Shown piece after piece: positions 2,699 to 62,220 of a stretch of DNA of 64,000 bases (within the stretch, counting starts at the first letter, position 1; each line of letters starts with the position of its first letter). The translations under genes and the position numbers were made by a program. The notes below the pieces were generated by a model that was not told the origin of the DNA, did no database searches, and worked only from the letters and a program-made list of their open reading frames with translations. Source of the DNA: Paramacrobiotus metropolitanus (taxonomy: Eukaryota; Tardigrada; Eutardigrada; Parachela; Macrobiotidae); the NCBI RefSeq assembly GCF_019649055.1, contig NW_026570229.1:992001-1056000 (forward strand). Reading direction: 5' to 3'.

Positions 2699-5600
2699 AT
2701 GGGATTCAAAAAGTCATTTACTTTTTCCGTGAACAAAGAACTGTTCTCCTCATATCCAGAAATCTTAACAGAATCCGTGGTGGTCTTGTGGTTCGCGTGT
2801 GAAATTTGTATGAAATTCGGTTTGCGTGTCCTACCGGATTGGCGTACCAGTCGATTAGATCCCGATCACTACAACTCTTTCGATTCCCTGCTCGAACTGT
2901 CTGGACTGGTAAGTAGCCCCGTAGCTGAAGCATCATCAAACAAATACTATTTTTATATTTCTTATTTGTATATATATTTGTATAATATTTATTTTTCTAT
3001 ATTAATGCTTCAACGTGGGTTAAATTAACCAGCTATTTTGTATTTTCTGTTTTTGCATGCTTCTTAACTTTAAATGTTCTGTGCCTTGATCGAATACGGT
3101 GTTCTAAAGGCAAATGCTCATCCCAGTCGTTGCATCCCTCTTTTCAACCGACGCTTAATTAATTTGAGGCACGGCCAAGTTTACATTTTTTTGAAATTTT
3201 GTTAATATTTTTCTTGGTATTACATCAATTTCCTCCTTGTATCTCTTTAAATACAAAGCACAGCTCAAGCAAGCAGAGATAATATTAATTTGTACTCAAT
3301 AACAAATTCCTCACGATTCTTACCAGAGACAGAGCACTTGGTACTGTATCGTTTTATGAACTTATGGAGATTTTTACGGCCCATACATCTGTTGTCGTGA
3401 ATATCGAACAACTACAAGTATAGTTTGCAGCATTCATATTTTCTTCACAGAAGAGCAATAGGTAGGTCAAAGTCTCGAACAAAACATTTCCGGTGCGAGC
3501 GCTTCCGGTAAGAGGAACTGCCAACCGCCTCTGGGTGGGAGCTTTAGGGGATGTTTGCAGTCACGATTTATAGTTACTTACTAAATAGTTCTTCTTATCT
3601 TTACCAGTCATTAATTCTGAATTTGTGTTGCTCATCAATAGACAATAATCATAAATATGTTGAAAAGCAAGTGGTTTTTCGATTCTAAACAAAATTTTAT
3701 GTCGCACCAAGTTCGACCGACTAGAAAGAACGCTGTTACTTAATGAATTCGCTATTCATCGCTCGTGGAAGTTTTACACCAGGGTTAGTTTAAAGCGAGA
3801 TTTGGGGAGACCATTACAAAATCTAGTTGGGTTCTTCTGTTTCTTGAACAAACAACACAGCTATGTATATGCTCGGGCGTTGCAATATGTTTTGCTAAAA
3901 CTAACTGCATTATATTATGTAAAACAGTATTTTCGTAAAAATCGACGCTTTCTAAGTGCGTGGATCATAATTAAAACGCGTTAAAAGCAATCATATTTCC
4001 TTGCTCAAGACTCCAGAGGAGATCAGCTCTCGGCACCATTCTGTTGTGTTTTTCTTTGCCTTGTTTACTGTTAATGCAGGCAGGTAACCCGTTATGCAGG
4101 CATATATGATTTTCTGCGGCCGTTCGATTATCTACATACTAAAACTCTGAAATAAGTAAAGAAACGGGAGTTTTATTTTACAAAGTACACAGTACACAAA
4201 ATGATGATATGCCGTTCGTTACCTGTAAGACAAAAATATGGCGTTCGTAACTCATTCTATGTTTTCCACTGGGAAATCCTACATATTTCGTTTCATTACG
4301 GGATTTGCTTTGTACCTTGCGAGTTGCGAATATGCTTCAAGTGCTCGATAAAATGGTGGATGCCCAAGATCGCTTTACCACCCGCTCTGTATGTGGAACG
4401 GTGCAACTACCTGTGAGCGAGTGTGGAGTGACTTTGCTTCGCAGACAGTCTGAGATACAGTTTATACCGGATATGCAAAACAAGCAACAGGGGCGTTCAT
4501 TATAAAACATAATTTCCTTTTATACATACTGTTTATGTATAGTGGATCTCAACGGCGCTTAGTCAATAAAATTATAAAAGTACTACTTATCTGGAAAAAT
4601 CGTTCAGCAGTCAAAATTTAATAAAACTAAGCAGTAAACGGTGAGGTCTCCAGTTTCCACAAAAAAAGGAAACTACGAAGCAATATGTTAATAATAAGAA
4701 AAAAAATTTCTAACTTTTTGCAGAAGGTCAATGCATGCTTCTGGGATGACGTCATGTCGGGATGGATGCAACCACATCCGGTCACCATTAACCAGTCGGC
4801 TGGGTTGGTTGTGGTACCACCTTCTTCATCGAACGTTCTCCTCGCTTACGTGGCCACTGTGACAACCATTCTTCTAACGGCATTCCTCGGCATCTCGTTT
4901 TGTTACCTGGTATACGAAAATCGCGACCGGACAATTCCCTTACCGAAGGACCACCTGTTGCGCTGCCGTGGACTGGCGGCGTTAGGCCGTTATAAGTTTA
5001 TTCAGGCGGCCGTCAAAATTCCTCTGCCACTGCCAGCTTACATTTTTGCCGTGTTGGTTGGTTGGTTGACTGTTGTCATCAGCTCAGTAATCCACTATGC
5101 GTTTTGGATGGTTGTCGAGGTCCTGCCAGTGGTGGTCCTGGCATGGATGTCAGTCATAATGGCCATGACTGTATTTGGCCCATCCACGGTGTTCCCTGGC
5201 TGTATCCTCTTCGCTAGCATATTGATCATGTATTGCGCCGGCCGAATTTGGGGATTGTGGATGAATGAGACCTATCATGCACTAACTATAAAGAAAATTA
5301 GGTAGGTAGGAAGTTTTTACCTGTCGGGTGAGGATTAAAACTACAAAATGATTTTCGTCAATAAATTAAGTTAAACTTTAATATACTAACACACTGTTTA
5401 TTGATATTAGGGTTAAACCAATAATTTATTTACTTAGTAACTTACTGTAGATATAGTGCTGCAGTTCACACTGGTAGTCGTTGTATTGATTTCCTCTTTA
5501 AGAAATCGTGTTATGCCGTATTATGTACTTTCAGGAAGCTGATTGCTGCGAAATCCAGTGTAAAACCGACGTTATCGATCATTACCTCACCGGGAAAGCC

Positions 5601-7225
5601 GATCGTAGTCGCAGGCACGGACCCTTACTATGAAGCCTGGAAAATCTCAGTCTGTTACTTCTTGGTATTCTGTTCGGGATGCCTTGCCGCTTATTACAAC
5701 GTCTGGCCATTGTGTCGAAAATTTCCTACCGTTAGTCGATGGCAAAGCAACAAGGATAGCGCCAACTGGACCTACTGGCAGGTTGTCAATCTAACGGGGA
5801 CCTGCAGCAAACACGGAACAGTAAGTGCTGATCTTTCTGGGACAAGAACCTGTTCCAAAAGCTTTGCTTTCTGTAGAAGCACTCTGACGCGCACCTATCT
5901 GTACTTGTGCCCACTCTATGTTGTGCATCATTTTTGATTTTGATGGATTAAATTTTCAAGTAGAACTTGATACTCGAGCTAATACTTCCGAACACTGAGT
6001 AGCAGGCTGCTTTCGAACATTTGAGATGGCCGCTTGTATTAAGTTGATATACCTGTAATGAGACACAATAATGATAAGTACTTGAAGTACTTTTTTTAGG
6101 GTTTCGATCAGGGGATCGCGATGCTGTCCTACTGGGTGGATTTGCAGTCGGAGGAACTGCAATCAGCGCATACCGGCAATTCCGATCTGCTGGCCAGCTT
6201 CACTCCGTCGTACCCACGCGTCGTCAGCTGGATATTCTTGGTGTGGAGTGGAGCGCTGTCCGGCGCCAGTGGTCTGCCCTACGCCGTCCTGCGTTATGCG
6301 AAGGGTATCTTCGTTGGCTTGTTCGTATTGATTGTCGGGGGACTGCTCGTCCACGGCGGTGTCCTTGTTTACTATAACAAATGGCGTCGGTGTGCCCTAG
6401 TCCAGCGGAGCGTGGTGGCTGACGACAGGTTGTCATTCTTAAATTAGGCTGTGCTTGGTAATACTGAAGGCTGTTTTGCCGTCCATACTTAGGACCCGTT
6501 TTTCTAAAAATTTTCTGTTCTTCTCCCTGATTTGCGCACCGGTTCGCGGCCATATCATTTTCCCGTTTCTTCTTCTTAAGGTAGACCCCTGCCTGTGCGC
6601 GCCTATTCCCTTTAATAAGCACGGGCATGTTTATTATTTCAGTGATGAACCTCTACTGGTGCCTGCTAACGTTGCGGCGGAGGAGAGCGGTTTAATGAAC
6701 GACGCGCCATCAGATCGTGTTCCATTATTGGCTGATGTAAAGACAGATGTTACCTGCATTGTGTTATCCGATCATTTGCAAGATCCCGCCACTAACGACC
6801 ACGTCATTCCGGAAGCCAAGGACGAACACGGTGCGCAGGTGGCTATCGAATGCACACCCATGGCTGCGCCACAGAACACAGTGGCTACAGGGCCCTTTTG
6901 CGTGTGCGAACAACTGAGCACTATTTGGTTGTTCGTGGTGGTCGCGCATTGCCCGGTAGTCTGCGGCGTGCTGCTCCCGTATTCGGTGGTGGGGCTGTTC
7001 CTGTGGGAAGAACTGCAGTTACCCGCTCTGCTGCTGCTGCTCACGGCCTACACAGTGTGGGTCTACCGCCGATTGGTGATGCTTGTGTGGTTGATGTGGT
7101 ACGGTGAGGAGATTATTAGAAAAGAATACGAAGTCCGCTGTGGACTCCGTTGCGCTTGCTGTGGAGAGATGATTCCGGCGGACGAGCTGGAGGAAAGACT
7201 AGTGGAGCCGCTGCTCACGAAATAG
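2699..7225 (+). CDS. Multi-pass membrane protein, tandem family copy 1 (subfamily I, intact)
   Basis: Five exons are predicted: 2699-2908, 4724-5301, 5535-5820, 6100-6428 and 6643-7225. All junctions are GT-AG with intron phases 0, 2, 0, 2, and together they give 661 residues with no internal stop. The start is the ATG at 2699, because all full paralogues begin at the same place (Met-Gly-x-Lys). Hydrophobic segments lie near residues 20-40, 107-133, 175-195, 198-220, 224-243, 298-317, 398-420, 427-450, 560-583 and 594-616. Exon 3 encodes a probable non-cytoplasmic loop with an Asn-Trp-Thr and an Asn-Leu-Thr sequon. The tail has a Cys-rich stretch (CxCC). The exon 4 donor (AG|GTTGTC) is weak. 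I do not recognise the family. It is likely a plasma-membrane protein; function is unknown. Confidence 0.75.
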
Positions 7226-9645: not shown

Positions 9646-9734
9646 AAACAAAGCACTTCAGACACTTCCGGCGCCTGAAAACTGGCAACCGCCTTGGTAC
9701 GGGGGTTTTGATATTCTGTCAACGGTAAACAAGT

Positions 9735-29124: not shown

Positions 29125-29743
29125 ATGGGGATTAGGAAGTTTTTAACGTATTTGTTGGACAAGAAACGGTATTCGTCTTATCCAGAAATTTTAGGGGAAT
29201 CCGCTTTGGTGCTGTGGTTTGTGTGCCAGATTTGCTTGAAGTTTGGACAGCGGGTTCTTCCAGAATGGCGAACCATTCGATTGGACCCGGACAGAAAGAA
29301 TTCTTTCGATTCCCTGCTCGAACTGTCTGGATTGGTAAGTCTCGCTTGCACACGATGTCACGCTCTCATTTGCAAACTTATATAAAAATCGTAATAATGA
29401 TTATTGAAGTTCATATGAAAATTGAATAGTCTCGTACTTCATTTGTTACGCTATACTGCGAAAAGCCTTGGAGTGGCAATATACTGTAGCTACTAGCTAT
29501 GTAGTACTTAATTAGTGGTACAAAACCAACCAAATAACCAATTACTTATACGACAATGGTGTTCTACCTAGAAGAAATATTTAACTGCAGACTGAATTTG
29601 CGGACCAGCCGCTGCATCCGAGTTTTTTTATCTGTTGAATATTTTATTCGTACTGGTATTAGGCTACTGTTATTTTACCGTATTTTTTGCGTAAATCAAA
29701 CTTTTGTTGTTGTTGTTAAAGTAAATTTATTGTTATTACTTAC

Positions 29744-29944
29744 ATCCGTAACTTCGTATACACGATTGCCGATGCCCGCGATGATCGGGCGAACCGCTGG
29801 GCCGATTTCAACGCGGCCAAGTGCGTTAGAACAGTCGAAACGGCGCGAAGGTTCATAGGCTACTGCGGAATCGATGCGCCCCAAAGGGAGGCACGAACCC
29901 CAGAGAACAAGCTGCTGCCATGGGCCTCCATATACGAACGTATG
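29744..29944 (-). CDS. Orphan GC-rich exon inside intron 1, unknown protein
   Basis: On the minus strand, exactly 67 open codons lie between an acceptor (CCGCATTAG, AG at 29946-29945) and a consensus donor (GAT|GTAAGT at 29743). They are clearly GC-richer than the surrounding intron. The peptide begins His-Thr-Phe-Val-Tyr-Gly-Gly-Pro-Trp and ends Ile-Gly-Asn-Arg-Val-Tyr-Glu-Val-Thr-Asp. I do not recognise a family. It could be an exon of an antisense gene or a captured gene fragment; no partner exon was identified. Confidence 0.35.
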
Positions 29945-30069
29945 CTAATGCGGAGCTACAGAGGCAGACCGCGCCCTTCGGCATCGCTTCGCTAACAACT
30001 CATGAAATACTGTAAAAAACGAAAGAAAATGAAAATAATCAACCTGATTATTAATGTAATCCGTGTTTT

Positions 30070-30255
30070 TCTTAGGTTTCTTAGGTTTTCCTAGATTTTT
30101 TAGATTTTCTCAGATTTATTATTTTCAGATTCTGAGGTTTCTTAGGATTTGTAGCTTTCTTAGGTTTCTTTGGCTTCTTAAATTTTCTCCGATTTATTAT
30201 TTTCAGATTCTCAGGTTTCTTAGGTTTTCACAGTTTATTATATTTTCAGTTTTCT
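30070..30255. repeat. GGTTTCTTA-type degenerate tandem repeat
   Basis: The region has repeats of (C/A)TTAGGTTT(C/T)TTAGG and CAGATTTATTATTTTCAGATTCT. The short unit is the reverse complement of the CCTAAGAAA repeat at 56120-56330, so the two arrays are related. Confidence 0.7.
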
Positions 30256-33013
30256 TTAGCGGTCGGAATAAACCTACGTCGAAATGAGTGTACGCCACGA
30301 AATTTTTTTTTTGTGGATATAAGTTCCGTAAACTGGTTGTTGTATATATTATCCGCTCAGGATAGCTTAGCACTGCTCAATCAAGCAGAGCAAATGAAGT
30401 CGTACGATTGTTAATCACAAACTATGTAGCTGTACTGGTGGACATCCTTTTTCCTAATTTTAAATGGTTTGGTACTCTCCGCGCATTCTTGCGTGTTATT
30501 CCGGACCAAGCACAGCACAACCCACTGCAGAGTGCAGACCATTAATTCGCATGACAGCCAAACCTTCCGGCAGCTTCCGGTGCGCAAAAACCGGCAACCG
30601 CCTCGGTAGGAAAGCTTGGCGCATTGCCTGCAGACTTACCTAACAACTAGTAACAAGTAACAGGCTAAAACAAAATAAGAAGTACTAGTACCGAACCTGG
30701 TGCTCCGGGACATGATATACCAGAGCGAAGCGCCCGATCTAATTGAGTTTATGCGTGGCCAAGGATTTACAGATACTATAGCTGTAGTAAGTTCTTACTT
30801 ATAGTAAGTACTTGGCGTGGCCCATTCGAGCAAGATGCTCGCACAGTCGTACAGACGCATATAAAAACGTACTATGCATATTTAATATTACCAATGAAAT
30901 ATAATCCACACTGATACTCGTACCTTGTGCTTACGGGCTTATTAGTTTTTTTATGCTAAAAATCTATATAGACTGTTTCTGTAGCTGGAATAATACGCGC
31001 ACTATAAGCGGTCGGTACAGGCCGGACAAAGTGAACAGAAAAGCTTGCAATTTTGTATAATACTTCGCTTATTGCTTGTAAATTAATTATTATGCTTACT
31101 ATTCACGCGGCAAACACTTTTTCCCCGTAAATCAACTTATTGGCTGAATTGTGTGAATGGGTGCATTAAACCATGTGAATCTCAAAACCTGTCACGTCAT
31201 AATCGTTTGTTGTTACAATCTTTTGCAGCATGTTGACGCATGCTTCTGGGATGACGCCATGTCGGGATGGACAAAGCCGCAGCCATATACCGTTGCCCGT
31301 TTGATATCAAACAGCTCGGTTTGGGTCCTTCCTCCTGCTTCGACCAGAATCCTGGGCTACGTGGTCACCCTCGTGTGCATCATGCTTGCGGCTATCCTAG
31401 CCGTTTCGTTAGTTTTCCTGATGGCCGTTAATCGCCACTGGACGCGTCCCGTATCGACGGACCAACTTCCTTACTGCCGAAAATTAGCTGTGCAGCTCAA
31501 GAAGCGCATTCGGTGTGCCGCTAACATTCATCTGCCCGATAGCATGGTGATCCTGCTGCATACGGTGATCGGCATAGCGAGTTTCATCGTCTACTATCAT
31601 AGCTGGATGATCGTCAACGCTCTGATGGTGCTTTTGGCGTGGCTGTCTGTTATACTGGCCATAAATGTATTTGGCCCTTCCACGGTATTCCCTGCCTGTG
31701 TCGTCTTTGTTGCCATACTGACCGTTTATTGCACCGGCAGGATTTGGGGATTGTGGATGAATGACACCTATGCAGCACTTATTAAAAAGGAAATCAGGTA
31801 GAAGATTTGTTGCCGAACACCAGCGGCATAGTATACATAATGTTTTACATTTGTTCAACATAAATTCGATACCTGTACAACATTTTCTGTTATGATAGCT
31901 TTACAGCTATAAAGATGAACTACAAACAGTATTAGTATCCAAGATAATTTTGCAGTTTCATCAAGAAAAATAACACTGTGTGTTGAAAATACTCACCTCC
32001 CGCTATTTGAATAACCTACAGGAAACTAACTGCTGCAAAGTCAACCGATAAACCTTTACCAATCGATGCTCTACTGGAAAAGAAATTTACGAACAGCAGC
32101 AGAAAACCAGGGCGAGGGCGTTGGGAAAGTGCAGCTTGCTGTATGATAGCCTTCTGCATGGGATGCATTGTCGTCTACTACAACGTCTGGCCAATTTCCC
32201 TCCGCCAGTCAATGGTTAAGCAACACCGGGAGTAGCAACACCGGAACTGGAAGTAACAGCACTGGGAGCAGCAGCACCGGAAGTGGCAACTGGTCGTATT
32301 GGCGCGTTGTTGCTACAACGGGGAACTGCACTAAACCCGGAACAGTACGTGCTCGGTGCTGACGTTTTTGAAACCAGTAATGAGTCTGTATTACGCTAGG
32401 TGAAGAGTTTGACTCTTGGATTGATCAATAGTATAAAACAACCGATTTCGGCTTTACCAAAAAATATTTAATAATACTATAATTAACGGTTTTCGAAATT
32501 TCTCTGACTTTCTCTGCATCTGTGCTCTTACGAATAGTTTATTTCAAATGCCTTCGAATAACTGAAACTACGATCTTTAAAACCTGAATTGAACTTCAGA
32601 GGTTTAGTCACCATGAAAACTTTGGATAGCATTTTTGCGATGATGTAGCGTAGGGAGAAAAATAACAACGGATGAGTTTTACAGCGTTTCGGCCAGAAAA
32701 TCGCGATGCTGTCTTACTGGGTAGATCTGCAATCGGAAGAACTGCGAGCGAACACTAGCGGCAATTCCAAACTGCTGGCCAGCTCCACCCCGTCCTTCTC
32801 ACCGGCCGTCAGCTGGGCGTTCTTGGTGTGGTGTGGAGTGCTGTCCGGCGTCAGTGGTATACCGTTTTTGATCCTGCAATACGCGGAATATATTATCATT
32901 GGCTTAGCCGTCTTAGTCTTATGTGTAGCGCTGTTGCATTGGGGTGTCCGTGCCTGCTGCAAAAAATTCCGTCGATCTGTCTCAGCTGAGCGAAGCAGGA
33001 AGACTGGCTACAA

Positions 33014-35622
33014 GTGAGGTATTTATCTATGACATTAACTGTGTTACATCGACATACCCTCGTGAAAATAAAAGTTACTAAAAACATCCAGTTACCAAAA
33101 GAAGTACTTGTAAAGTTACGCTAAACTTACAAAAAAGTTTTCATGACAGCCGATTATAACTTGGACCTTTCACATAACTTACGGAATACTTCAAGTTGGT
33201 CAAAAGTTACTTACTCGTATTACAGCACTGACGCACAGTCACGCACTGTTTGAAAATTTATTTTTTGTAATCTTAAGCATAATAAGCAGTCACCAATGGA
33301 CGTAAGTTGCTACTTTATACAGCGCAACTGCACAAAAACATTTTATGCGATGTAGTTTTAAAATATTAAAATAATAAACATATGATTAATCTTTTAGTTA
33401 GTAATTGCATATGTACATATGTATACAATACATATTTCACTTCAGTTTATGTTTCTGTGGTTCATACAGATAATAAACAATGAATTAAGTAATTCGGTGG
33501 CGTCGTAAAACAAAATAACCAATGTGGCTTTTAATTACTAGCAAACTAGTAAATAAATAAGACTCCGTACTGCAATAAAATTTTATTGAAACACATTACA
33601 AAAAAATAAAGCAATCATTTTGTGGCAGTATACGAAGCAGCTATGTGAAAGGTATGCATGTTACCCCACGAGGTGGCAGCCGCAATAAGAACGCACGGTC
33701 GAGCACGTAAACATAGCTCAGCTCGCTAATAACGCAGTCGAGCCGTTGAAATTCAACACACTTGTGACTTGTAGGAAATTATGAATCAGTTTGTTTCACT
33801 TTTTAGTTTATTTTATTACACTTTGCTTTGATGTTAAGGGTTTAACAGAAAATGATAAGGTCTGATACCAGACGTGATTTGTAGCTTTCTGTATGGAATT
33901 TTGAAACATTGAGTCAGAAAGCAGTACCAGGTGTAGACTGCTTCTTCACGGGTCTACGAGCAGAATCGCCGTTGAGAGCGTCTCTGCTGAATGACGAACC
34001 TGCAGCTGGGTTGTTGGACGAACCTGCCTTGATTCTCAGTCATTCTTTCTGTTACAACAGGTATGATGACTGGTTTTAAAACGTTATATAAACGTAGCCA
34101 TATGATTTTGGAGTCGACTTCGTTCTAGTAAGCGTAGAAGAATTGAAAATTTAAATTTTTTGTCTTTGTTTTACGCTGGACGGAGTCGATTCTCTCAAAT
34201 TTGCTCACATCCATATGAAGATCCCTTCACACGTTATAGTTTTAAAAATTTACGCTTCTACTTGTCAGTCTTAAAGGCAGTCAAGCTAATTTTGTTGTAT
34301 TTCGTCACAGGTTCTTCGGTTATTTTTGGAGTCGACTCCATGGAACGATCTCTTCCCCTTCGTTAAGCATGAATTACTGGCACCTTCGCTGCGAACGCAC
34401 ACGAGCGTACACTGGGCCTTTGGATGGAGGTGTGAAGCACACTGCCAGTCTCAGCAAAGGTGAGCTCCACAAACTGGATTCAGACGTTAGTAATTTGAGT
34501 AAGTTGGTGTGGAGTTAATTGTTAAGTTACTTAAGTAACTGAGTTTGTGTACGTGCAGACCACAATTTTTAATTTGTGGTAAATGTTTTCCCGTTCCTTA
34601 GGAAACTAACGGATTTCATTGCCCATTTGATGGACTGGAGTCGACTCCGGAACCGACACAGACTTTTTGTGGTTTAATTTCTGGCTTTTGCATTATATTC
34701 TTCCTATTTAAATTTCTGTATTTTAAAACAGCAAGTGCAGCACTCAGACGATAGTTTGATGTTTATTTGTGGGTTTTTTTCTGTAATTTCAGTGTTATTT
34801 TTTGTGCGTTGAATAGAAGTATGTGCAAAATTACGAGTAATGTGCGGCAAAAGTTGCAATAAAGCTTCTGACAACGATAAAGCAAAAGTTCTGAATACAG
34901 TGCAATAAAACTTCTAAAAACGACTGCCAAATTAAGTTGGGAATTATAAGTTCTACACTAACTTTTACAGCACAAAAAGGTATAGCCGCTGTTCAAAGAT
35001 TGTTACAAAAAAACATAAATTTTCACGGGGGATAGCCCCGTCCGGAAGAGAGACCGAATGTACCCCCAACTCCCAAGTAAAACTGCAACCTGTGTACAGT
35101 AATGCAAATAATACAGATCATGAGTTTTCCACTCAAACTTACTGTATTGAGTGTGCAGTGCAGGCCTGTGTGGTTAAATGCACGCTGCACAGCTTGCACA
35201 GGCACTTGCTGTACAACCGCTGCGCACTGATTTTAAATCTGGATGGGATGTATGGGAATGCTCGAAGCTCCTTTTTCTCTTTCCGAACGGGCTTGTGGTC
35301 ATGATTTTCACACAAATATGTGTGACTAAAAAAAAACGTCTTGAGTTTCGTGTACGGTTTGGCCTGGTATTTATTCAGTTCAGTTTCCTCTTGTATTGCA
35401 CAATGTACCGGGATTTTTCCATCAGGTTTGTTTTTCGGTTTCCACCAAGGTTCTTTTCCATTTAAGCGCTCATTATTATTGTTTATTGTACGGCAGGCAG
35501 GTAACCCATTAAAAGGCTAGGATCGAGTTCTAGCCTGGGAATTTAAACCTGGCTAAATAACAGGAATCATGAAATTAGAGCAAAAGCCACAAAACAAGAG
35601 AAGTACTAAGAAAAGAAAGGCA
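33014..35622. other. Expanded intron 4 of the 29 kb copy
   Basis: AT-rich sequence with no supported gene. It holds two exact copies of the palindrome GGAGTCGACTCC (34328, 34637) and two near copies (34110, about 34180). A stretch at about 35497-35560 (CGGCAGGCAGGTAACCCATTAA ... TTTAAACCTGGCT) recurs at about 46996-47060. Confidence 0.4.
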
Positions 35623-35991
35623 TCAATTAATAGTAACATGCTTCAGTGCATTACGAAAAACAGCAAGCGAGCTGCTCTTAAGAATGTCGCTTCCGGCCTC
35701 GGTTAGCTGGCTCATAACGTTGTTCAGCCTCCACGCCAACGTGGACTTCCCCGTCCTTGTCCTTCCCTGTCCTTCGATGAAGGTCCTGTTTCCGCTTCGA
35801 AGGCTGTACGGTTTGGAATCGTGTTTTACGACGATCATTTCGGTGAGGTAACGGGGCACTTGGAACTTCTCCGGGTGCAGAATTTTGTAAAGCCAAGTTG
35901 CTTCCTGGTGTTTCCATCGCTTAAACAGTGGCGTTATCTCGTATTGCTTCATTAGGTCGGTGGTGGACACTTCGGCATAGTTGGCAATAGC
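35623..35991 (-). mobile_element. LINE-type retrotransposon 3' fragment (second family)
   Basis: A minus-strand frame of about 122 codons ends at 35623. It shows the C-terminal pattern of non-LTR reverse transcriptase proteins: Pro-Tyr-Ser-Leu-Arg-Ser-Gly, then Arg-Thr-Arg-Thr-Gly-Lys-Ser, then an Asn (usual WN-LP position) and Phe-Arg-Asn-Ala-Leu-Lys near the end. It is unlike the tails at 9.2 and 36.3 kb, so it comes from another family. It is truncated on its 5' side in intron 4 of the broken copy. Confidence 0.55.
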
Positions 35992-36310
35992 TCAAGTTTC
36001 ACATTTAAGAAGAAGGATCTGTTTTGTTATTCCAGGAAAAAATCGCAGCTGTTAAAGGAGGACCTTGCGCAGGAGACTGGTATTCTGAACAGGGAGGCCT
36101 CAGCTCGTATCCCGGGGTCGTCTAGCGTGACGGCAGACGGTACTCATATCTGCATTGCCCCATTCGACAATTTGCAAGGGGACATCACTGACAACCGAGA
36201 ATTTCCGAAAGCAAAGGAATGTCATGGTGCGCACTTGTCTATCGAATGCACATCCAGGGCACCTACAACGGATGACGTAGAGTCCACAATACCCGACTGC
36301 TTGTGTCACT

Positions 36311-36492
36311 TCTGTTTTTTTTAAACAATATCAAGATCTAATTACGGTCGAACGAAACAACATTCTCGACGGTCCCCATTACTGAAGCAGCATTACCACG
36401 TTGAATTGCTAAAGAGATGTTCTGTTTCAAAAACTCCAGAGTCTGGAGTCCAGACTACGAATCTCGCCGGTTTGTAGCAAAATGAGTCTATA
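36311..36492 (-). mobile_element. LINE tail inserted in exon 5 of a family copy
   Basis: On the minus strand this reads Leu-Gln-Thr-Gly-Glu-Ile-Arg-Ser, a frame break, then Glu-Phe-Leu-Lys-Gln ... Gln-Arg-Gly-Asn-Ala-Ala-Ser-Val-Met-Gly-Thr, a stop, a short untranslated part and a run of A (the T run at 36311-36318 on +). It matches the C-terminus of the element at 9238. Host exon sequence resumes at about 36493 with Leu-Val-Val-Val-Cys-Pro-Leu. About 20 host bases appear to be lost at the site. Confidence 0.7.
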
Positions 36493-36767
36493 GACAGCTA
36501 TTCGTGCTGGTCGTAGTTTGCCCCTTATTCATGGGCTGGGAGCTCCCGTATCCTCTGGTGGGACTCTTCCTGCCCGAACGCCTGCAGCTGCCCGGCTTCC
36601 TGCTGCTGCTAACGGCGTACAGCATTTGGATGTACGAGTACTGCAAGCTGGTGAAGTGTGTGCGGCTGACATGGTACGGTCGGCACTCCCGTAAAAACGC
36701 TCGCGTTGGCAGAAACTGCATGCAACGACCAAGCCCAGACGCCCGGGAGTGTACTCGTCTCTCCTGA

Positions 36768-37651: not shown

Positions 37652-37739
37652 GATAATTAAGCTTTTTTCATTGTTTGGTTAACTTGTAAATGTTTATTGA
37701 TTTGTACTCTGCCGTCGTTTTATCCTTTTATCCTAATCC

Positions 37740-38143
37740 CGGTAGTCAAGAAGAAACCCGATGCGCAAGGGTCTGTCGTATGCGAGTCCAAGACTTCAAC
37801 ACCGGCCGATGGAGAGCGCTTCTGTATATGTGAGATCGTATTCTGCAACGCTTGGCTCTACATACTGGCCGCCCATTGCTCGGCGATCTGTGGTGTATGG
37901 CTTCCGTATTCCTTGGTGGGTCTTTTCCTGCCCGAACGTCTGCAACTGCCCGGTCTCCTGCTGCTGCTAACGGCCTCCACCGTTTGCATGTACCGCTTCT
38001 TGGTAAAGTCTGTGCAGCAAATGCAGTGCAGTATGCAGTCTATTTGTATTGCGGATGATAACGACCCTGGCATTGGCTGCAAAGACAGTACTGCGATCAA
38101 CGGCCCCGAGCGCCCAGCGATGGAATCGTTTCCAACGAAATAA
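37740..38143 (+). pseudogene. Relic exon 5 of the tandem family (subfamily I type)
   Basis: The frame from about 37750 to the TAA at 38141-38143 carries the C-terminal module: Cys-Ile-Cys-Glu, a hydrophobic helix ending Ala-His-Cys-Ser-Ala-Ile-Cys-Gly, then Leu-Pro-Tyr-Ser-Leu-Val-Gly-Leu-Phe-Leu-Pro-Glu-Arg-Leu-Gln-Leu-Pro and a Leu-rich helix. It ends Pro-Thr-Lys like the copies at 2.7 and 48.9 kb. The 5' part of the exon and all other exons are missing; a LINE tail lies directly upstream. Confidence 0.7.
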
Positions 38144-40962: not shown

Positions 40963-41080
40963 TATCTGAGGTGTTGCTTAATATCTGAGGTGTTTATTAT
41001 TCAGTGGTTTAACCACTCCTTCCATCGGCCGTATACGCCGCTCAATGTACATATGCGGACTAGGAAGAAATAAAAATTTG

Positions 41081-42583: not shown

Positions 42584-42651
42584 TCCGTTGATTGTGATTA
42601 TTTCAGTTTTGTCCGGCGGTTTGGGCGGATTCGGGTCAGTAAAGCCGGAAT

Positions 42652-45171: not shown

Positions 45172-45963
45172 ACGGTAATAATCTCCGTCAAATTCTAGAC
45201 TTATCTTATGTAAAGTACAGAGCTGCTTTGCAGCTTACGGTTTGCACAGTAGGAAAATTGGCCTGGGCAGCTATGAATGGCCTGCTTCACGCAATTCTAT
45301 TGAGCTGCTCTGCAGCTTTACCCACACAAAAGACGGCTATCGCTGATAAAGATCAGCTAGTTCCTTGACATAACGTTCAAATAGAATCAGGAAATCCGCT
45401 CTGTGAAGCCATCGCTCCGCTGCAAATAACCTTTAACGATTGTTCCCTCAATAAATTATTAATAGTTTCGGATGGAACATCGTTCCTTTTCACAAAAGGA
45501 TATCGTCCAGGTAGACTGTAACAATATCTGTTACAATAACTTTCACTACTCTACCATCTATCACAATGGCCAAGACTTTCTTCATTTTAATCGCAAATTA
45601 ACTGCACGGTGTTCAATTATTCGAAAACAATCGTTTTCTTCCTTCCTTGTTTTCTCAAAATAGCTATATCTATTCTCTGGACAGAAATAATCCGTCTGTT
45701 TGGGAATTAATCCTGTGAACTCTAAATTCTAGGCTTAATGCCTACCACTTTGGTACGCTATCCGCGGTTCTTCTCCTTGCTGGCGGCCGCGTGCCTTCCG
45801 AACCAGCGACGCTCCTTGCTTCTGAACTGGGGGAGTTCTTCCGCTGCTGGTTGTTCTTTGCTGGCTATCGCTGGTGAACCGAGGTCTCCACTGAAGGAAG
45901 GGAAACTTCTGTGTCACGGCGTGGTCAGTGTAACGAGTGCAAAACTGAGGGAATGACAGGGAT

Positions 45964-48910: not shown

Positions 48911-51900
48911 AGGGTCAACGCATGCTTCTGGGATGACGTCCTGTCAGGATGGATACAGCCGCACTGGGTTACTGTTTTCCATGCAGCATCCGTGGGGTTG
49001 GTCGGGGTTCCACCCACTGCGTCGAACCTTGTCCTCGGTTACGTGGCCACCATGACGACCATCCTCCTTGCGGCGGTTCTCGGCGTCTCCCTCTGTTGCC
49101 TGGTATTTGTTAACCGCGACTGGATGTTTCCTTTTCCGGAGGACCATCTGCTGCACTGCCGTGGATTAACGGCGTTGGCCTGCTGCAAATATATTCGGAT
49201 GCCCGTAAAAATTCCCGAGCGGGCTTACACAACCACCGTGATATATGCTGTGATCGTCGCCGTTGGCGCTGTGGTTCACTATGCTGCTTGGCTGTTCTTG
49301 GGCACCTTGCCGGTGGTGCTTCTAGCCTGGATGTCAGTTATACTGGCCGTAACTGTATGCGGCCCATCCGCGGTGTTCTCTGGCTGTATCCTCTTCGCTG
49401 GCATATTGATCGTTTATTGCTCCGGTCGGGTTTTGGGATTATGGATGAATGGGACTTATTATGCACTTATTAAAAGGAAAATCAGGTAGAAAGTTTATAA
49501 TTTTCGGTTACCTTAACAGCTACAAACAATAACGAATTATGTCCATGCGGTAGACTATGGCTACTATGACGTTTTTCGCATTCCGGACATTTTTACAGTT
49601 CTTGTCGCGTCTGGACACCAGATGCACGATAATCTTACTTGTTTCGACATGATAAAACCTTGTCAAAAATTGCTTATAGTTGATGATTAGTGTTTTTATA
49701 CAAGTTTGTACGCACTTATAAAAAGTATCAAAAGTTTCTTATGTAGAGCAACGCAGAGAATGCCGTATCTCTGCTATCAAGTAAGCGAATCCATATTGCA
49801 AAGTGTCCAGAAAGTGCAAAATGTCGAAGTATAATTAGTTGTGTGAGTTCAAAAAACGAGTATTTTACTTATTTATTGGTAAAATTTTTAAACATCAGCC
49901 AGTGCTGCATTGTAATCTGCAAATATACCAAAAATGTCCGTAGTTATAAAAGAATACGTTCATCCGTAATATTCGCAGGAAGTTGACAGATGCGAAATCT
50001 ACCATAAAGCCGTTATCAATCAACCTGCCACTGGAAATGCCGTCGATCCCAGTCATCAACGAGATCCATAAAGGCGTGAAAAGCGCTATTGTAACCTATC
50101 GATCTTGTGTTTCGGATGCGCTGCCGTCTATTACAACGCCTGGCCGTTGTGTCTGCAGTTTCCCTCCGTTTGTCAGTGGAAGAGCAGCACCGGGAGCGCC
50201 AATTGGACGTACAGGTACTGGAAGGTCGTCAACACCACCGGAACTTGCAGCAGCATGGAACAGTACGTACTCGCATTTCCGAAACGAATAATTTTCTGCA
50301 AAAAAAAACGAAAGAACCTGAAGATCTGTTTGAAAAGCCGCATTCATACATAGTTACATACTTACATGCATGAGAAACATATAAGTGCGCCTATTACTTT
50401 AATAGACACCAGGCAGTAGTCATCAAACAGTCAAAAATTTAAACGCGAACACGCTACTCCACAGTCAAAATTTAACACTTAAAAACGTACATACTCGTAC
50501 GGCTTTTGAAACAATCACTACAGAGTATATAGTATATCTTTGCCTACTTCCTTGCGTGTACGGTACTTCAGCAGTTAATTTTTGCTTTTATGTTCGCTTT
50601 TATTTTGATACTTCCTGCCTTTAGAAAATTAAACCTTACAATAGTGATATTTTTGCAACAGAAAAATGTGGGACAAACAGCATCGTGTGATACAGTAGCT
50701 AAAAAACAGGGAGAAAAAAGACCCGAGTGCTTCTTCTTCAGAGTTTCGACCAAGGGACCGCGATGCTGTCATACTGGGTGGATCTGCAGTCGGCGGAATA
50801 GCGCTCGATACACACTGCCAATTCCGATCTGCTAGCTAGCTTCACCCCGACGTACCCACCCGTCGTCAGCTGGATGTTCCTGGTGTGGAATGGAGCGTTG
50901 GCCGGCGCCAGTGGTGTACCATATACAGCCGTAAGGTACGCGGAAGCTATCGTCATTGGCTTGGTCGTCGTTGGACTACTAGTTCATGACGGGGTTCGTG
51001 TGTGCTACAATAAATGGCGCCGGCGTGTCCTCATCCAGTGAAGCACGGAGACTCTCAGACTAGTGACAGGTTGGTACCTTAATATCTGTAAACAAGGCTG
51101 TTCTTGGTAGACCGGGCGGCTGTTCGAATTGTCACTTCTGTCTAAATGTCACCATGACAAGCGTCCCGGCGTCGTCGAAAGATTCTACTTCGTCTCAAGG
51201 TTCGAAAGGCCTCCGGCGACATAATGTGTTGTCGCGATGCGTAACGGCCGTGTGAGTCGTGCCCGTACTAGGCAAGTAATAAGTACCTGTACAGTAATAA
51301 GTACAGTAATTTTTGCGGGCAGTTAAAGTGGAACTGCCCCAACGAAAACGAGGAATTTCGGCGCACCCCCAGATCCTTTTTTTTACAAATTTTCGGCTGC
51401 ACTATATCATAGAAGAAATGAAATTAGAGTGAGCGAAAGCGAACACATATTTCCCCCTTCCGTTCATGAATACCTGTTCGCCATTCGGTACCATGAGCAT
51501 TCCGTATCGGACTGGTAGATACGAAACGCGATTAATAAGATGTGGGTATCTACACGGAGATGTTGATTATTTCAGGGATGATTCGCCACCCTTGTCTGCG
51601 GAGCACACTGAGGAGACTGGCTTACTGGGCAGCGTACCATTAGATCGTGAGCCTGAATCAGTTGACGTGGAGACGGATGAGAACGTCATTGCGCCATCCG
51701 ATCCTTTGCCAGAGGAGGAGCCTGGCGACCAAGTATCCCGTGAAGCTAAGAATAAACACGAAAAACCGGTGTCTGTCGAGTGCACACCGCCTATGGCTCT
51801 TACGACAAAACGCGCAAAGGCTAAAAAACCCTGTTGCCGGTGTGAAGATCTGAGCATTCTTTGGTTATTTGCTGGCCGCTCATTGTCCGCTACTTTGCTG

Positions 51901-52147
51901 TATGGCGTTCCCATGTTCCCTGGTGGGACTGTTCCTGCCCGAAGAACTGCAGCTACCCGGTATCCTGTTGCTGCTAACGGCGTATACTGTCTGGGTCTAC
52001 CGCAAGCTGGTGATGTTTGGGTGGCAGATGTGGTGTGGTGTGCAGTTCTGTAACAAGAAACTGAAAGACCGTGGCGTTGGCTGGCGAGACGTTATTGCGG
52101 GCAACAAGCGTCTGCATCCTGTAACGGAATCATCTCCCACGAAATGA
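48911..52147 (+). pseudogene. Tandem family copy (subfamily I), no exon 1, multiple lesions
   Basis: Exon 2 (48911-49485) is fully open and closest to the copy at 4724. Exon 3 (49979-50262) changes frame near 50100 and again near its end; it is 284 bases where the phase needs a multiple of three plus one. Exon 4 (50742-51069) has a TAG soon after Leu-Gln-Ser-Ala-Glu and a TGA near its end, and is one base short. Exon 5 (51576-52147) loses one base near 51868, so the final helices are out of frame with the linker. No first exon was found upstream, where the LTR element and repeats lie. The lesions are too many for sequencing error. Confidence 0.8.
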
Positions 52148-54586: not shown

Positions 54587-55227
54587 GTTTGCACCGCCCC
54601 TATGCCGCATATTAGGGGTAGAAACACATGCTGAAATTAGAAATAGAAACTCACCAGCAGCATCGAACCGTCACATTTCCCAAAATACGAGACTTCTATC
54701 AACTAGTAGGAAATAAAATATGTAGTATTTAACAAATACCCATGAAGCGCAGTTCACTCTACAATCAAAGTTAAAAATTAATAATTTTATTTTAATTCGG
54801 CTATCGTACAAGTGCGCCGCGCCACATGCGTACGGACTGTTAAGTTAGTGTTATGGAAATATGCGACCGTTTGTTTATCCCCGCAGCCTCGCCCACCTAA
54901 GGTAAGGTGCCGCCAATCGTGCAGAAGAAACCGATCTTTTAAGTGCTGATGGCGGATATGCTGCATCACATGGTTATCATGGCCAGATTATATCCGAATT
55001 CAGTGCGACTACGAGCTGAAGTAAAGCTGTGTCTACGGAGCACTGGGTGGCGTGCTTTCTCCGTCACGGCGGTGTACTCTTGCTCTGTTCCTAAGAACCA
55101 GACAAACTGCAATTCAAAGATCCTGGTTTTCTTTCCTGATTCCTTGCACCCTGGTTAGGACTTCGTTACCGTTGGCCTTGCAACTACAGCCCTGTTCTCA
55201 TCGGAAACACTGAGAAGCCAACGTACA

Positions 55228-55821
55228 ATGGCTACCCGGAGAAGCCAACGTATATTGGCTACCCAAGCAGCGTCCAGCAGTTCCCCGAATCAACAAATGA
55301 GCAAACGGGAAGAGTGGAAAACACTAACTGTGGAAGAGCGTCTAAACCGCCTGGGTGACAGTTGCCAGAGTGTGAGGGATCGCCAGTATGAAGCAGACAC
55401 GTACGTCTTGGCCCCGAAATTTGAAGCAGGCGACCCCGTGGTGGTGTGCTATGAGGGTATCTACTACAACGCAATGGTTGGCGTTGTGCTAAAGAAAGCC
55501 TGGGATTGTCCGGATCTGAAGAAGAAGGTGCCCCTGTATCGCATCAGATATCCCTCCACGAAGAAGAGCAAGACGGAGGAGGTTGCGGAGTATGATCTGA
55601 TGGGGGTGACCAAGCACACCGTGCTGCATGAGCTGTTGTATGCGCACTACTGGAATAAGGGAAAACTACAGACAGGGACGACGCAGAAGAAGGATCCCGC
55701 GAATGAAATCTTTGAACTGCCAGCTGGCGTGCTGCAAGACATGCAGAAGGTATGGCACGAGCACATCCAGCGGGCTGAGCCGGGTGTCAGGAGCTTCACT
55801 GAGTGGATCGGGATGGAATAA
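55228..55821 (+). CDS. Single-exon chromo-barrel-like protein
   Basis: Encodes 197 residues. Residues about 68-135 resemble the MRG15/Esa1-type chromo barrel: Phe-Glu-Ala-Gly-Asp-Pro-Val-Val-Val-Cys-Tyr-Glu-Gly-Ile-Tyr-Tyr-Asn-Ala opening strands, then Val-Pro-Leu-Tyr-Arg-Ile-Arg-Tyr-Pro, then an acidic Glu-Glu-Val-Ala-Glu-Tyr-Asp-Leu-Met. Such modules bind modified histone tails or act as chromatin adaptors; here the role is inferred. The N-terminus is basic and Ser-rich (Arg-Arg-Ser-Gln-Arg). The MRG domain expected after a full MRG15 barrel is absent. The lack of introns in an intron-rich region suggests a retrocopy or a single-exon gene. ATG at 55228 follows a short tandem duplication (GAGAAGCCAACGTA repeated). 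Confidence 0.6.
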   Translation: MATRRSQRILATQAASSSSPNQQMSKREEWKTLTVEERLNRLGDSCQSVRDRQYEADTYVLAPKFEAGDPVVVCYEGIYYNAMVGVVLKKAWDCPDLKKKVPLYRIRYPSTKKSKTEEVAEYDLMGVTKHTVLHELLYAHYWNKGKLQTGTTQKKDPANEIFELPAGVLQDMQKVWHEHIQRAEPGVRSFTEWIGME

Positions 55822-56432: not shown

Positions 56433-56434
56433 AG

Positions 56435-57425: not shown

Positions 57426-57699
57426 GTATACCAATAATTTACAAAAATAATGCATGTATATCGTATACTTATGGTTCATATTGTTATTTTTTTACATGTT
57501 TATGTCTCGGTTCACATGTAGTTCTCCACTTGCCGCCCCCTCATGAACGAAGTTTAGTCCGGAAACTCTTGAGAATGCTGCAAGATTTTCCCTTTTCCGT
57601 TGAACGCGATCAGTTGACAGTTCACTAGTTACCATTTTCAATATAATTCGTAACATCAGCAGCGAGTCGGCCAAACGTTGATGCCAGCGTAGTCAATTC

Positions 57700-58172: not shown

Positions 58173-61100
58173 ATGGGGATTAAACAGTTTTTCACAAATT
58201 TATTAGACAAGAAACCGTATTCATCCTATCCAGAAATTTTATGGGAATCCGTCTTGGTACTGTGGTTTGCATGCCAGATTTGTTTGAAGATTGGTTTACG
58301 CGTTCTTCCAGAATGGGGAACCAGTCGCTTAGACCAGGATACATACAGCCCTTTCGATTACCTACTCCAACGTTCTGGATTGGTAAGTGACCGTAAGTCT
58401 CATTTGCACATATTGCCCCAAGAAATTCATATAAAAATTCGGTTTATTACTGAACGATATTATCTTGAGCTAAAACTGTAGCACTCGGTATCCGCATGCT
58501 TGTTTTGTAATAATCCACTGCTGAAAACAAATATTTATTCGCAAACCGAATTAAGGTAACAAGCCATGCTTTTTAACTAACTGTTGTTTTCATTTACGCT
58601 GGTGCTTTCAGGCTTACCTTAATTTATCGTAAGTTTTTCTCCAAAGTTCATTATTTTTTGTTGTGTTTTATATCTACTCTTGTTAGCACAGCTCAATTCA
58701 GGCCGAGGTAATAAGATATATTGCGATAGTAAAAAATAACGGGCAAGAGCACATCCATTAATTAATTTTATGAATTTAACGAGTAATGTTAAATTACTCT
58801 GCGCGCATCCTTTGTCTGTTAAGTATTCCCGACCAAACACTCCGAGCGGGTCGTTAAAATTGTAGTGTCCGACGAAACCTCTCGGCAACTTCTGGTGAGT
58901 ATACACCCGCAGCCGCCTTGGCATGGCAGCCTAATATTGCCTGCAGTAAACCACTAAAACTTCCCAGTGTTAGATTAACTCCTGCCAGTGCCAGTTGGCA
59001 GTTGTATCAAAATAACAGCTCTCCAACAAAAAAAGGAATTTCTACAAAAAATAAATTCTGACCTCGCAGCTTGCTAGAGAAGCCACAGAATGTAAACCCG
59101 CCTAATTTATTCCTCCATGACATTTTATAGCCGCTTTAATGATGTTTTTGTGTGGCCGATTCGAGCACGGTACGTGTGCAACATTATAACTGCAATAATT
59201 ACTGGCCACGGAAACCCGTATCTCATGACGATTTGTTTAATGCTATCACGTTTTATAGCTCATACTTCATAGACGTAATATTACGCAAACTGCCCCCACA
59301 AAATGTAAATAGAATTCCGCTGGCTACTGTTCACGGCATTTATCGCTTGCATAATATATGCAGCCATACGGGTAACAAGTCCTGTATTCCCGAATCCCGT
59401 ACAGATACATGAATGCAGTGGCAAACTCGTGTGACTGGCTGCATTACACAGTGCAACTGTCACGCCATAATATAATATACTTCATATTCTTGTGCTCTTT
59501 GCAGAAGGTTGACGAATGCTTCTGGGACGACGCCTTGTCGGGATGGATCCAACCGCATCTGTCCACCGCTGCCCGTTTGGTATCGAGTGGCACGTCTGGG
59601 GTTCTTCCCCTTGCTTCAACCAGAATCCTGGGCTACGCAGTCACAATAACCACCATCGTTCTTGCGGGCATCTTAAGCGTCTCGTTAGTTTACCTGGCAG
59701 TCGTCAACCGCCACTGGACCCAACCGTTAGCGAAGAACCAGCTGCCGTACTGTCGCAGATTTGCAACGCAGATCCAAAAGTACATTAAATACGCCACCAG
59801 AATTCAGCTGTCCGACTGCATGGTATTCGGGCTGCATGTGGCGGTTGGCATCGTCAGCTTCGTCGTCTACTACCCCGGCTGGATGATCTTCAACGCCTTG
59901 ATAGTATTTATGGCGTGGATGTTTGTCACACTGGCCATAAATATTGCTGGCCCATCCGCGGTATTTCCTGGCTGTATCATGTTTTCTAGCATACTGACCG
60001 TTTACTGTATCGGCAGAATTTGGGGATTGTGGATGAATAACACCTATGCTGCACTGATTAAAAAAGGAGTCAGGTAGGGAATTTTGCCGGATACGAACGG
60101 TATCGTACACGTAAACACCCAGCACTAGAACAACATGTACAGTACAGTATATCTGTGCTTTCAATACTCGTATAAACGAACTACAAACAATATTACAGAT
60201 AAATAAGCTGATTGCAGTATATTACAAGTGTACCTCGGAAAATAATGCAGTTTGCTGAAAATATGTACGTACCGCTGTTTCAAAAACTTGCAGAAAACTG
60301 ACTGCTGCAAAATCCACCGAGAAGCCTTTATCAAACGATGCCCCATTGGAAAAGACATTGGCTGGTAATGACAGAAAGCATGGAAGAGGACGCTGGGGAA
60401 CTGCAGCATGCTACATGATTGCCTTTTGCATTGGATGCATTGTCGTCAGCCACAACGTCGACCCATTGTTTAACAAATTTCCCGCTGTCGTTCAATGGTT
60501 AAGCAGCACCGTCACGAGCAACACCGGAAGTAGCAACACCGGAAGTAACAACACCGAAAGTGGCAACACCGGAAGTGGCAACGCCGGAAGTAGCAGCACT
60601 GGGAGTTGCAATACTAGAAGGGGTAGCTGGACGTATTGGCAGGTTGTCAGTACAACGGGGAACTGCACTAAACCCGGAACAGTACGCAATCGCGTTTTTG
60701 AAGAACATAATAAATTAAGTTTTTGTACTACAGTATTACAGGAGAAGAATTCTAGGATTGATGAACAGTCTAAGAGACGTCAGAAGAAAATTAGAAAGAA
60801 AAAATCAGAAAATCAGAAAAAGGCTTAGACGTCAGAAAAACGTTAGAAAGAATGGTTGTATTTTTTTTCCGAGCTGAATAAACTAAACTGCACTTCTAAC
60901 GTCTGCCGTAAGAAAATTCTGAGCAGTATTTTGAAGAAAGTACTAGTAACAATAAATGTAATTTTACAGCGATTCGGCCAAGAAATCACGATGCTGTCAT
61001 ACTGGGTGGACCTGCAATCTGCAGAACTGCGCTCGATGCCAGCTAGCAGCAATACCGCGCTGCTGCTCAGCTTCACCCCGTCCTTCTCACCAGCCGTCGG

Positions 61101-62220
61101 ATGGACGTTTCTGGTGTGGAGTGGAGTGCTGTCCGGCCTCAGCCGTATACCGATTATGGCCATGCGTTGTGCTGTATGGAGCACGGTTGTCATCTCCGTC
61201 ATGTACTCCTGTGGACTGCTCTTATGGACGGGTGTTCGTGCCTGCTGTAAAAAAAGCCCACGAGATGTTAAAGCCGAGCGAAGCAGTAGAAGCCCACGAG
61301 ATGTTAAAGCCGAGCGAAGCAGTAGGACCGAAAACAGGTGGAATAATTATTATTTTTTACAAGATGGCATCGTAGCGTAATAACTAATGACCGCACATAA
61401 CCCGAGCTGTCTCAATTGATTGGTCGCGCACTGTTCTACGTAAACCCATGCGCTTGACTTTTTCACGCATGCACTTGCCTTTCACTTTCCGGGCGGGATT
61501 GTAATAATGATTTTCTCACTTAATTACGCGCGGCTGAAAAATGATGCCGTTATTTTCATGTGTGCGTGTTGGTTCTTATTTGGTTCTTCTAGCACTATGT
61601 ACCTGATCTGTTGCACGAGGCCCGTGTTCTGTAACAAGGGCTGTTGTTATTTCAGGAAACAATCACCGCTATTAACTGCGGACGTTTCGACGCAGGAGAC
61701 CGATATTGCGAACCGGGAGCCATCGGCTCATTTGCCGGAGTTGATTAACGTTACGATAGATGATACTCGCTCTTGCACTGTACCTTCCGACCATTTGCTA
61801 GGGGATACCATTGGCAACCAAAAACTCCCGGAAGCAAAGGACAGTCACGCTGTAGAAGTGTCTATCGAATGTGCACCTAACCCGAATGATGCTGCGGAGC
61901 CATCAGAATGTGGCGGCCTGTGTGACATATGGGGTTATAGGAAGTTAGGCCTGCTGCTCGTCATTTGCCCCTTATTGTGCGGCTGGGTACTCCCGTATCC
62001 AGTGGTGGGCCTCTTCCTGCCTGAACGTCTGCAGCTGCCCGGCTTGCTGTTGCTGCTGACGGCGTACTCGATTTGGATGTACTGCAAGCTTGTACAGTTT
62101 GTCCGGCTGACGTGGCGCGATTGGTGTTGCTGTACAAAAAAATTGGAAGGGTGTTGCTTTGGTCGAAATCGCGCGCAACAACCCAGCCCACACGCCGAGG
62201 AGTGTGTTCGTCTTTCTTAA
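58173..62220 (+). CDS. Multi-pass membrane protein, tandem family copy (subfamily II, intact, longest)
   Basis: Exons 58173-58382, 59505-60073, 60294-60681, 60970-61337 and 61656-62220 join in frame to 699 residues. Compared with the 12 kb copy, exon 3 is longer because of a Ser/Thr/Asn/Gly-rich repeat (about 60509-60616) between the first loop helix and the conserved Trp-Thr-Tyr-Trp. Exon 4 is longer because of an exact-looking 36 bp tandem duplication (about 61252-61323) adding Ser-Pro-Arg-Asp-Val-Lys-Ala-Glu-Arg-Ser-Ser-Arg. All splice sites are consensus GT-AG. The Asn-Trp-Thr sequon of other copies is Ser-Trp-Thr here, but Asn-Cys-Thr remains. Family and function are not recognised; a plasma-membrane location is inferred. 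Confidence 0.8.

What the first reader, a model, noticed from the sequence alone, without database searches (positions are those of the whole stretch)
2699..62220. Unrecognised tandem family of ten-helix membrane proteins
At least eight same-strand units (three intact, three broken, two relic exons) share five exons, identical intron phases (0,2,0,2) and conserved signatures: Cys-Phe-Trp-Asp, Gly-Arg-Ile-Trp-Gly-Leu-Trp-Met-Asn, Leu-Ser-Tyr-Trp-Val-Asp-Leu and Gly-Leu-Phe-Leu-Pro-Glu-Arg-Leu-Gln-Leu-Pro. I cannot match it to a known family. Local amplification and decay of polytopic proteins is typical of chemoreceptor, transporter or conflict-related families. This is the strongest candidate for an undescribed system here.
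Basis: partly seen in the sequence, partly recalled or inferred. Interest (0 to 1): 0.85.

Follow-up and report, generated by a model that had tools for sequence, protein, structure and literature searches.

The report
Large orphan tardigrade membrane-protein gene family
The window holds part of a tandem array of genes for multi-pass membrane proteins that match no family we could search; about a hundred related copies are spread over what is very probably a water bear (tardigrade) genome, and those examined are under selection to stay functional, so this looks like an undescribed sensory or transport family.

Summary
Units at 2699, 12060 and 58173 splice into intact frames of 661, 653 and 699 aa with GT-AG introns and phases 0,2,0,2. 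Three further units are broken and three exon relics remain, one on the minus strand. The array is a corner of a larger family: exon-2 searches of the genome give about 108 copies on 20 contigs, 78 with a full open exon 2, some of them probably haplotig copies. The genome is very probably Paramacrobiotus metropolitanus. No credible match was found in Pfam, NCBIfam (three members only), PDB sequences, bacterial genomes or viral contigs. dN/dS is 0.18-0.60 per exon. "Ten-helix" is a hydropathy count: 2 of 8 members lack segment 8, and loop charge and glycosylation motifs suggest about eight crossings. Function is untested. Best guess: a lineage-expanded chemosensory, probably ionotropic, receptor family (about 0.4); a transporter family is the main functional rival.

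The parts
2699..7225 (+). unit A, intact: exons 2699-2908, 4724-5301, 5535-5820, 6100-6428, 6643-7225; 661 aa
12060..16040 (+). unit B, intact: exons 12060-12269, 13620-14185, 14397-14694, 14936-15264, 15482-16040; 653 aa
22279..26483 (+). unit C, broken: e1 22279-22488; e2 23748-24319 in two frames; e3 24561-24788 truncated; e4 25125-25457; e5 match 25917-26459, frame open to 26483
29125..36767 (+). unit D, broken: e1 29125-29334; e2 31229-31801 open; e3 32023-32344 in two frames; e4 32685-33017; e5 in two pieces 36037-36282 and 36489-36767
37733..38143 (+). relic: second part of exon 5
48911..52072 (+). unit F, broken: no exon 1 found; e2 48911-49489 open; e3 50072-50251; e4 50744-51059 with TAG at 50799-50801; e5 51610-52072 in two frames
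58173..62220 (+). unit H, intact: exons 58173-58382, 59505-60073, 60294-60681, 60970-61337, 61656-62220; 699 aa
10543..10703 (+). relic of exon 4, two frames
1043..1159 (-). relic of exon 3 (NWTYW stretch), minus strand

Best explanation
The units are members of a large, old, birth-and-death family of polytopic membrane proteins, very probably in the tardigrade Paramacrobiotus metropolitanus. Genes were copied whole, with five exons and flanking DNA, and then diverged or decayed. The inferred protein has a cytoplasmic N-terminus, about eight membrane crossings plus one or two re-entrant or peripheral hydrophobic segments, two glycosylatable outer loops (C-x-WD...W after segment 1; NWTYW...C...LSYWVDL after segment 6), variable inner loops, and a cytoplasmic C-terminus. 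I think it most likely works as a chemosensory receptor that is itself a ligand-gated channel. A conserved helical core (segment 1, the G-x-x-AVFP/GRIWGLWM hairpin, the LPERLQLP hairpin) would form the pore or gate, and variable segments would tune the ligand, giving many receptors with different specificities. Shown: the family, gene structure, spread, purifying selection and lack of known relatives in the libraries searched. Inferred: topology, glycosylation, surface location, channel and sensory role.
For: About 108 copies in same-strand runs on several contigs, 78 with a full open exon 2; the 12 C9 rows and 2 C88-end rows of a 36-row tree form one 100/100 group. dN/dS 0.18-0.60 by exon, lowest in segment 1 (0.10, 17 of 28 pairs usable) and the GPSAVFP/GRIWG stretch (0.22-0.26), highest in the acidic inner loop and C-tail (0.69-0.71). 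Upstream DNA of B, C, D, H is similar (0.65-0.66 against 0.37-0.46 for random pieces; intron 1 also 0.48-0.59). Loops 2 and 3 are basic; the segment 6-7 loop holds 21 N-glycosylation motifs, in 8 of 8 members. Poorly conserved inner loops fit a self-contained channel or transporter better than a G-protein-coupled receptor (inference). Size, tandem spread and decay resemble known chemoreceptor families (general knowledge).
Against: No expression, ligand or structure data. The genome already has insect-type gustatory receptors (36 matches to PF08395), unrelated to this family; they share only 2 contigs with it (C9, C51), so there is no clustering with known chemosensory genes. No region has dN/dS above 1, so ligand-driven diversification is not shown. 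The cytoplasmic N-terminus is conserved (0.22), which does not fit a simple 'inner parts vary' rule. Transporter and structural roles fit the same sequence facts.
Confidence: 0.4

Rival explanations
1. A lineage-expanded solute or lipid transporter family, with paralogs differing in substrate.
For: Polytopic core with conserved glycine/proline/acidic hairpins and mostly poorly conserved inner loops; expanded transporter families are common (general knowledge).
Against: No match to a transporter family in Pfam or PDB sequences. About 100 copies with frequent decay is more usual for receptors (general knowledge).
Confidence: 0.27
2. A reproduction or recognition family (sperm, egg or allorecognition surface proteins).
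For: P. metropolitanus has male-biased gene regions on 29 scaffolds (PMC11191345, section 16 read); large tandem families can be of this kind.
Against: The outer loops have dN/dS 0.28-0.43 and are not hypervariable. The main text of that paper names no scaffold numbered 8, 9, 10 or 88; its figures and tables were not seen, so this says little.
Confidence: 0.12
3. A very divergent branch of a known family (for example chemoreceptor superfamily, TMC, anoctamin, innexin-like) that sequence profiles cannot detect. This is a question of ancestry and overlaps the functional readings.
Against: PDB searches with profiles of 3, 23, 8 and 12 members and Pfam scans of single members found nothing credible; profile comparison with gustatory receptors of the genome gave probability 0.4%. 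The scan did recognise 8 of 8 such receptors, but these had been picked with the same profile, so this control is weak.
Confidence: 0.3
4. Decaying repeats or chance open frames, not genes.
For: Three of six window units are broken.
Against: Three intact spliced frames, dN/dS well below 1, phases conserved in distant members at junctions 1-3, further open copies outside the window.
Confidence: 0.02

Closest known systems
Insect-type gustatory/odorant receptors (Pfam 7tm_7, 7tm_6)
   Same: Polytopic family with many copies, in the same genome; expected ionotropic sensory use (recalled).
   Different: No profile match, hhalign probability 0.4%; spliced products of 600-723 aa from five exons against 30 of 36 receptor matches in reported open frames of 335-449 aa; large outer loops.
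TMC, anoctamin, OSCA/TMEM63 channels (ten or eleven helices; recalled)
   Same: Similar number of hydrophobic segments.
   Different: No Pfam or PDB sequence match; helix count here is uncertain.
Connexin/innexin/CALHM-type four-helix channels (recalled)
   Same: Each half of the protein can be read as helix, large outer loop, helix, inner loop, helix, helix (inference).
   Different: A duplication of such a unit was tested and is not supported; no profile match.

Membership tests
Insect-type chemoreceptors (7tm_7 / 7tm_6) | Match to the Pfam profile | tested here: not met
   0 of 8 full-length members and 0 of 23 exon-2 sequences; 8 of 8 gustatory receptors matched, but they were picked with that profile
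Insect-type chemoreceptors (7tm_7 / 7tm_6) | Profile similarity to receptors of the same genome | tested here: not met
   hhalign probability 0.4%, 8 against 8 sequences
Insect-type chemoreceptors (7tm_7 / 7tm_6) | Seven helices, N-terminus inside | tested here: inconclusive
   ten hydrophobic segments in A, B, H, eight or nine in two distant members; about eight crossings inferred; no structure
G-protein-coupled receptors | Match to a 7tm Pfam profile | tested here: not met
   no 7tm family among the listed matches
TMC / anoctamin / OSCA channels | Match to family profile or solved chain | tested here: not met
TMC / anoctamin / OSCA channels | Shared fold | not testable with these tools
   structure prediction switched off
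Known transporters (SLC, MFS, ABC) | Match to family profile or solved chain | tested here: not met
Bacterial or viral gene by transfer | Relative in bacterial genomes or viral contigs | tested here: not met
   12 and 11 pattern hits, none a relative (exon 2 only, one short peptide pattern each)
Ionotropic chemosensory receptor (functional class) | Sensory expression and ligand-gated current | not testable with these tools
   no expression or assay data

The most novel reading that the evidence does not exclude
A new class of animal ligand-gated channel or receptor, perhaps confined to tardigrades, with about 100 genes in one species and working alongside the insect-type gustatory receptors as a second chemosensory repertoire, with a fold not yet in structure databases.
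Probability: 0.2. Interest if true: 0.85.

Novelty: new variant of a known kind. Interest (0 to 1): 0.6.

Why it matters
Large families of multi-pass membrane proteins usually show what an animal lineage senses, transports or recognises. How tardigrades sense food, mates or drying is, as far as I know, little studied; none of the titles listed in my searches (only part of the hits is listed in the first two) describes tardigrade chemoreceptors. A family of about 100 copies with no recognised relatives is a concrete, testable candidate. If structure shows a new fold, it would add a channel or transporter class.

Tried and rejected
Pfam near-hits (Mobilization_B E 0.005-0.012, TMEM9 0.0036, PMP22_Claudin 0.07-0.1, DUF2567 0.0059 and others) are below the curated cut-offs where these are shown, hit one or two sequences per scan, and name unrelated families: rejected. 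Pentapeptide_2 (E 4.9e-5, one of three members) is probably the Ser-Asn-Thr-Gly repeat in unit H: rejected as low complexity (inference). ATP synthase subunit c/b and an acetyltransferase in PDB (E 0.05-2.3): chance matches.

Internal duplication (two four-helix halves): hhalign of halves gave probability 0.8%, and a shuffled control scored higher (40 shuffles tried). Exon by exon, only e1 against e3 exceeded its 30 shuffles, at probability 1.7%; the five other pairs tried did not. Not supported.

Horizontal transfer from bacteria or viruses: no relatives found. An extra-intron reading for the C57/C51/C1 members, written in the notebook, was corrected: they carry a longer inner loop in one open frame. 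The C59 and C81 members do have exon 2 split over two frames.

The automatic gene builder misplaced exon 4 in two of the three intact window units (644 and 654 aa in place of 661 and 699), so its exon-4 ends in distant members are unsure. A first search for scaffold names used word starts and was repeated with match anywhere, same result.
Full report
WHERE IT IS. The window is G000:C9:992001-1056000 of a 169.8 Mb genome in 533 contigs. The genome is very probably that of the tardigrade Paramacrobiotus metropolitanus. A paper on that species (PMC11191345; passages and section 16 seen) gives 170 Mbp, a longest scaffold of 4.48 M, and two DMRT genes on scaffold 5, whose surroundings are drawn for 1.96-2.37 Mb. 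Here the genome is 169.8 Mb, contig C1 is 4,484,719 bases, and two of the five DM domains found lie on C5 at 2.135 and 2.163 Mb. The name is an inference; the tools give none.

THE OBSERVATION. Three intact five-exon genes (A, B, H) of 661, 653 and 699 aa splice with GT-AG introns in phases 0,2,0,2. Three broken units (C, D, F) and three relic pieces accompany them. The relic of exon 3 is on the minus strand.

EXON STRUCTURE IN OTHER MEMBERS. Best splice sites chosen without imposing a phase, on window and outside copies with adjoining exon hits, gave phase 0 in 24 of 24, phase 2 in 10 of 11, phase 0 in 14 of 14 and phase 2 in 7 of 10 for the four junctions, donor and acceptor together. Donors alone at junction 4 were undecided (phase 2 in 7, phase 0 in 8, phase 1 in 3 of 18). 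The complete models were built with these phases imposed. They gave stop-free proteins of 600-723 aa for 7 loci outside the window (L004, L011, L012, L014, L017, L019, L021; L014 and L019 are near-copies). L003 and L005 gave models that look damaged, L022 and L028 gave none, and the other outside loci in that run lacked one or more exon hits. The builder misplaced exon 4 in window units A and H, so exon-4 ends in distant members are unsure. Four more C9 loci (L038, L039, L041, L042) show open frames for all five exons; in a fifth (L040) exon 1 matches only from its ninth position.

THE FAMILY. Proteins B and A each find 76 pieces in the own genome, where only the best 68 of 350 and 67 of 352 candidates were scored. 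Two divergent exon-2 queries, for which all 137 and 138 candidates were scored, find 124 and 123 pieces at E <= 0.001. I pooled the rows with six places seen only and merged neighbouring pieces. This gave 108 copies on 20 contigs, 78 covering exon 2 without a stop. The figure is approximate. Six copies lie on C365, where one tested stretch of about 5 kb matches C88 at 88-99% including non-coding DNA, so it is probably a haplotig or a recent duplicate. At least one counted copy (L005) carries an internal duplication in exon 2. An open exon 2 does not prove an intact gene. C9 carries 19 copies, all on the plus strand. The most distant query (C1) finds 166 pieces at E <= 0.05; the rows listed are again this family.

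A tree of 36 exon-2 sequences puts all 12 C9 rows and the 2 rows from the end of C88 in one group (100/100), and the C57, C51 and C1 members on the other side of the midpoint root, which is for drawing only. DNA upstream of exon 1 is similar between units B, C, D and H (0.65-0.66 against 0.37-0.46 in ten random controls), and intron 1 less so (0.48-0.59). So whole genes with flanking DNA were duplicated; that this includes the promoter is inference.

SELECTION. Among A, B, H and six outside members, mean dN/dS (NG86) is 0.18 for exon 1 (8 sequences, 26 of 28 pairs usable), and 0.48, 0.42, 0.42 and 0.60 for exons 2-5 (9 sequences, 36 of 36 pairs). Pairs with dS above 2.5 or failed estimates were dropped, more of them in short segments (17 of 28 pairs left for segment 1). 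By segment it runs from 0.10 (segment 1), 0.22 (N-terminus) and 0.22-0.26 (GPSAVFP/GRIWGLWM) to 0.63-0.71 (loop 2, the first helix after it, the linker before segment 6, segment 8, the acidic loop, the C-tail). The outer loops have 0.28-0.43. These are coding genes under purifying selection. Positive selection is not shown.

TOPOLOGY. Ten hydrophobic segments show in A, B and H. In an eight-member alignment, segment 8 is missing and segment 9 weak in 2 of 8 (L017, L021). Loop 2 (8.0 K+R in 39 residues) and loop 3 (9.9 in 55) are basic and so probably inside. Loop 4 has 21 N-glycosylation motifs, in 8 of 8 members, and loop 1 has 8, in 6 of 8, so both are probably outside. Against this, loop 3 also has a motif in 6 of 8, next to the membrane, and loop 6 has one in 3 of 8. 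If the loop assignment holds, three segments between two inner loops cannot all cross, nor can two segments between an outer and an inner loop. I infer about eight crossings with both ends inside. This is inference; the structure tool was off.

RELATIVES. No library gave a credible match: Pfam with single exons, full proteins and divergent members, NCBIfam with three members, PDB sequences with four profiles, bacterial and archaeal genomes and viral contigs, the last two with one exon-2 pattern each. Eight gustatory receptors from this genome, 13-24% identical to the first of them, were all recognised as 7tm_7; as they had been found with that profile, this shows only that the scan works on such divergent sequences. 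Profile comparison of the family with these receptors gave probability 0.4%. Whether other tardigrades or other animals carry the family could not be tested.

LITERATURE. Searches for tardigrade chemoreceptors, tardigrade-specific membrane families and this genome (listings and starts of abstracts seen, often a part of the hits) showed no description of the family. Term searches in four papers showed no passage on it: PMC11191345, PMC5531438, PMC6652013 and PMC9224920. [quoted passage not shown] The first is said to occur widely and the second has a known domain, so neither is likely to be this family, but I could not compare sequences. Supplements were not readable, and most subscription papers are not in the library.

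FUNCTION. The size, tandem spread, decay, moderate dN/dS and polytopic form fit a chemosensory family. The mostly poorly conserved inner loops fit a self-contained channel or transporter rather than a G-protein-coupled receptor. The outer loops, not hypervariable, argue against an arms-race recognition family. I give the chemosensory channel 0.4. I treat 'hidden branch of a known fold' (0.3) as a question of ancestry that overlaps the functional readings. The novelty label reflects that lineage-specific expanded membrane families are a known kind, while this one has no kin found here.

Noticed in passing
window 39898-45234 (-): Gypsy-type retroelement pieces between relic exon 5 and unit F: aspartyl protease (E 1.8e-11) and a weak integrase match below cut-off (E 0.0062); scanned in five separate pieces.
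   Followed up: partly
window 19032-20385 (+): Tc5/pogo-like transposase: HTH_Tnp_Tc5 and DDE_1 in two neighbouring open frames between units B and C.
   Followed up: partly
window 55159-55818 (+): 220-aa open frame without a Pfam match at 0.01; by recall it resembles MRG/chromo-barrel proteins.
   Followed up: no
G000, 36 places; L030-L037: Insect-type gustatory receptors (PF08395), 30 of 36 in reported open frames of 335-449 aa; no listed title on tardigrade receptors in my searches.
   Followed up: partly
G000 C365 and C88; L019 and L014: C365 matches C88 at 88-99% over about 5 kb including non-coding DNA: probable haplotig or recent duplication.
   Followed up: partly
L005 2700-3455; G000:C9:963359-964102: Exon 2 appears with an internally duplicated stretch of roughly 45-60 residues.
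   Followed up: no
window 60519-60627 (+): Ser-Asn-Thr-Gly repeat expansion in exon 3 of unit H, in a probable outer loop.
   Followed up: no
L026, L027 (C59, C81): Divergent members, one copy per contig, with exon 2 split over two frames.
   Followed up: no
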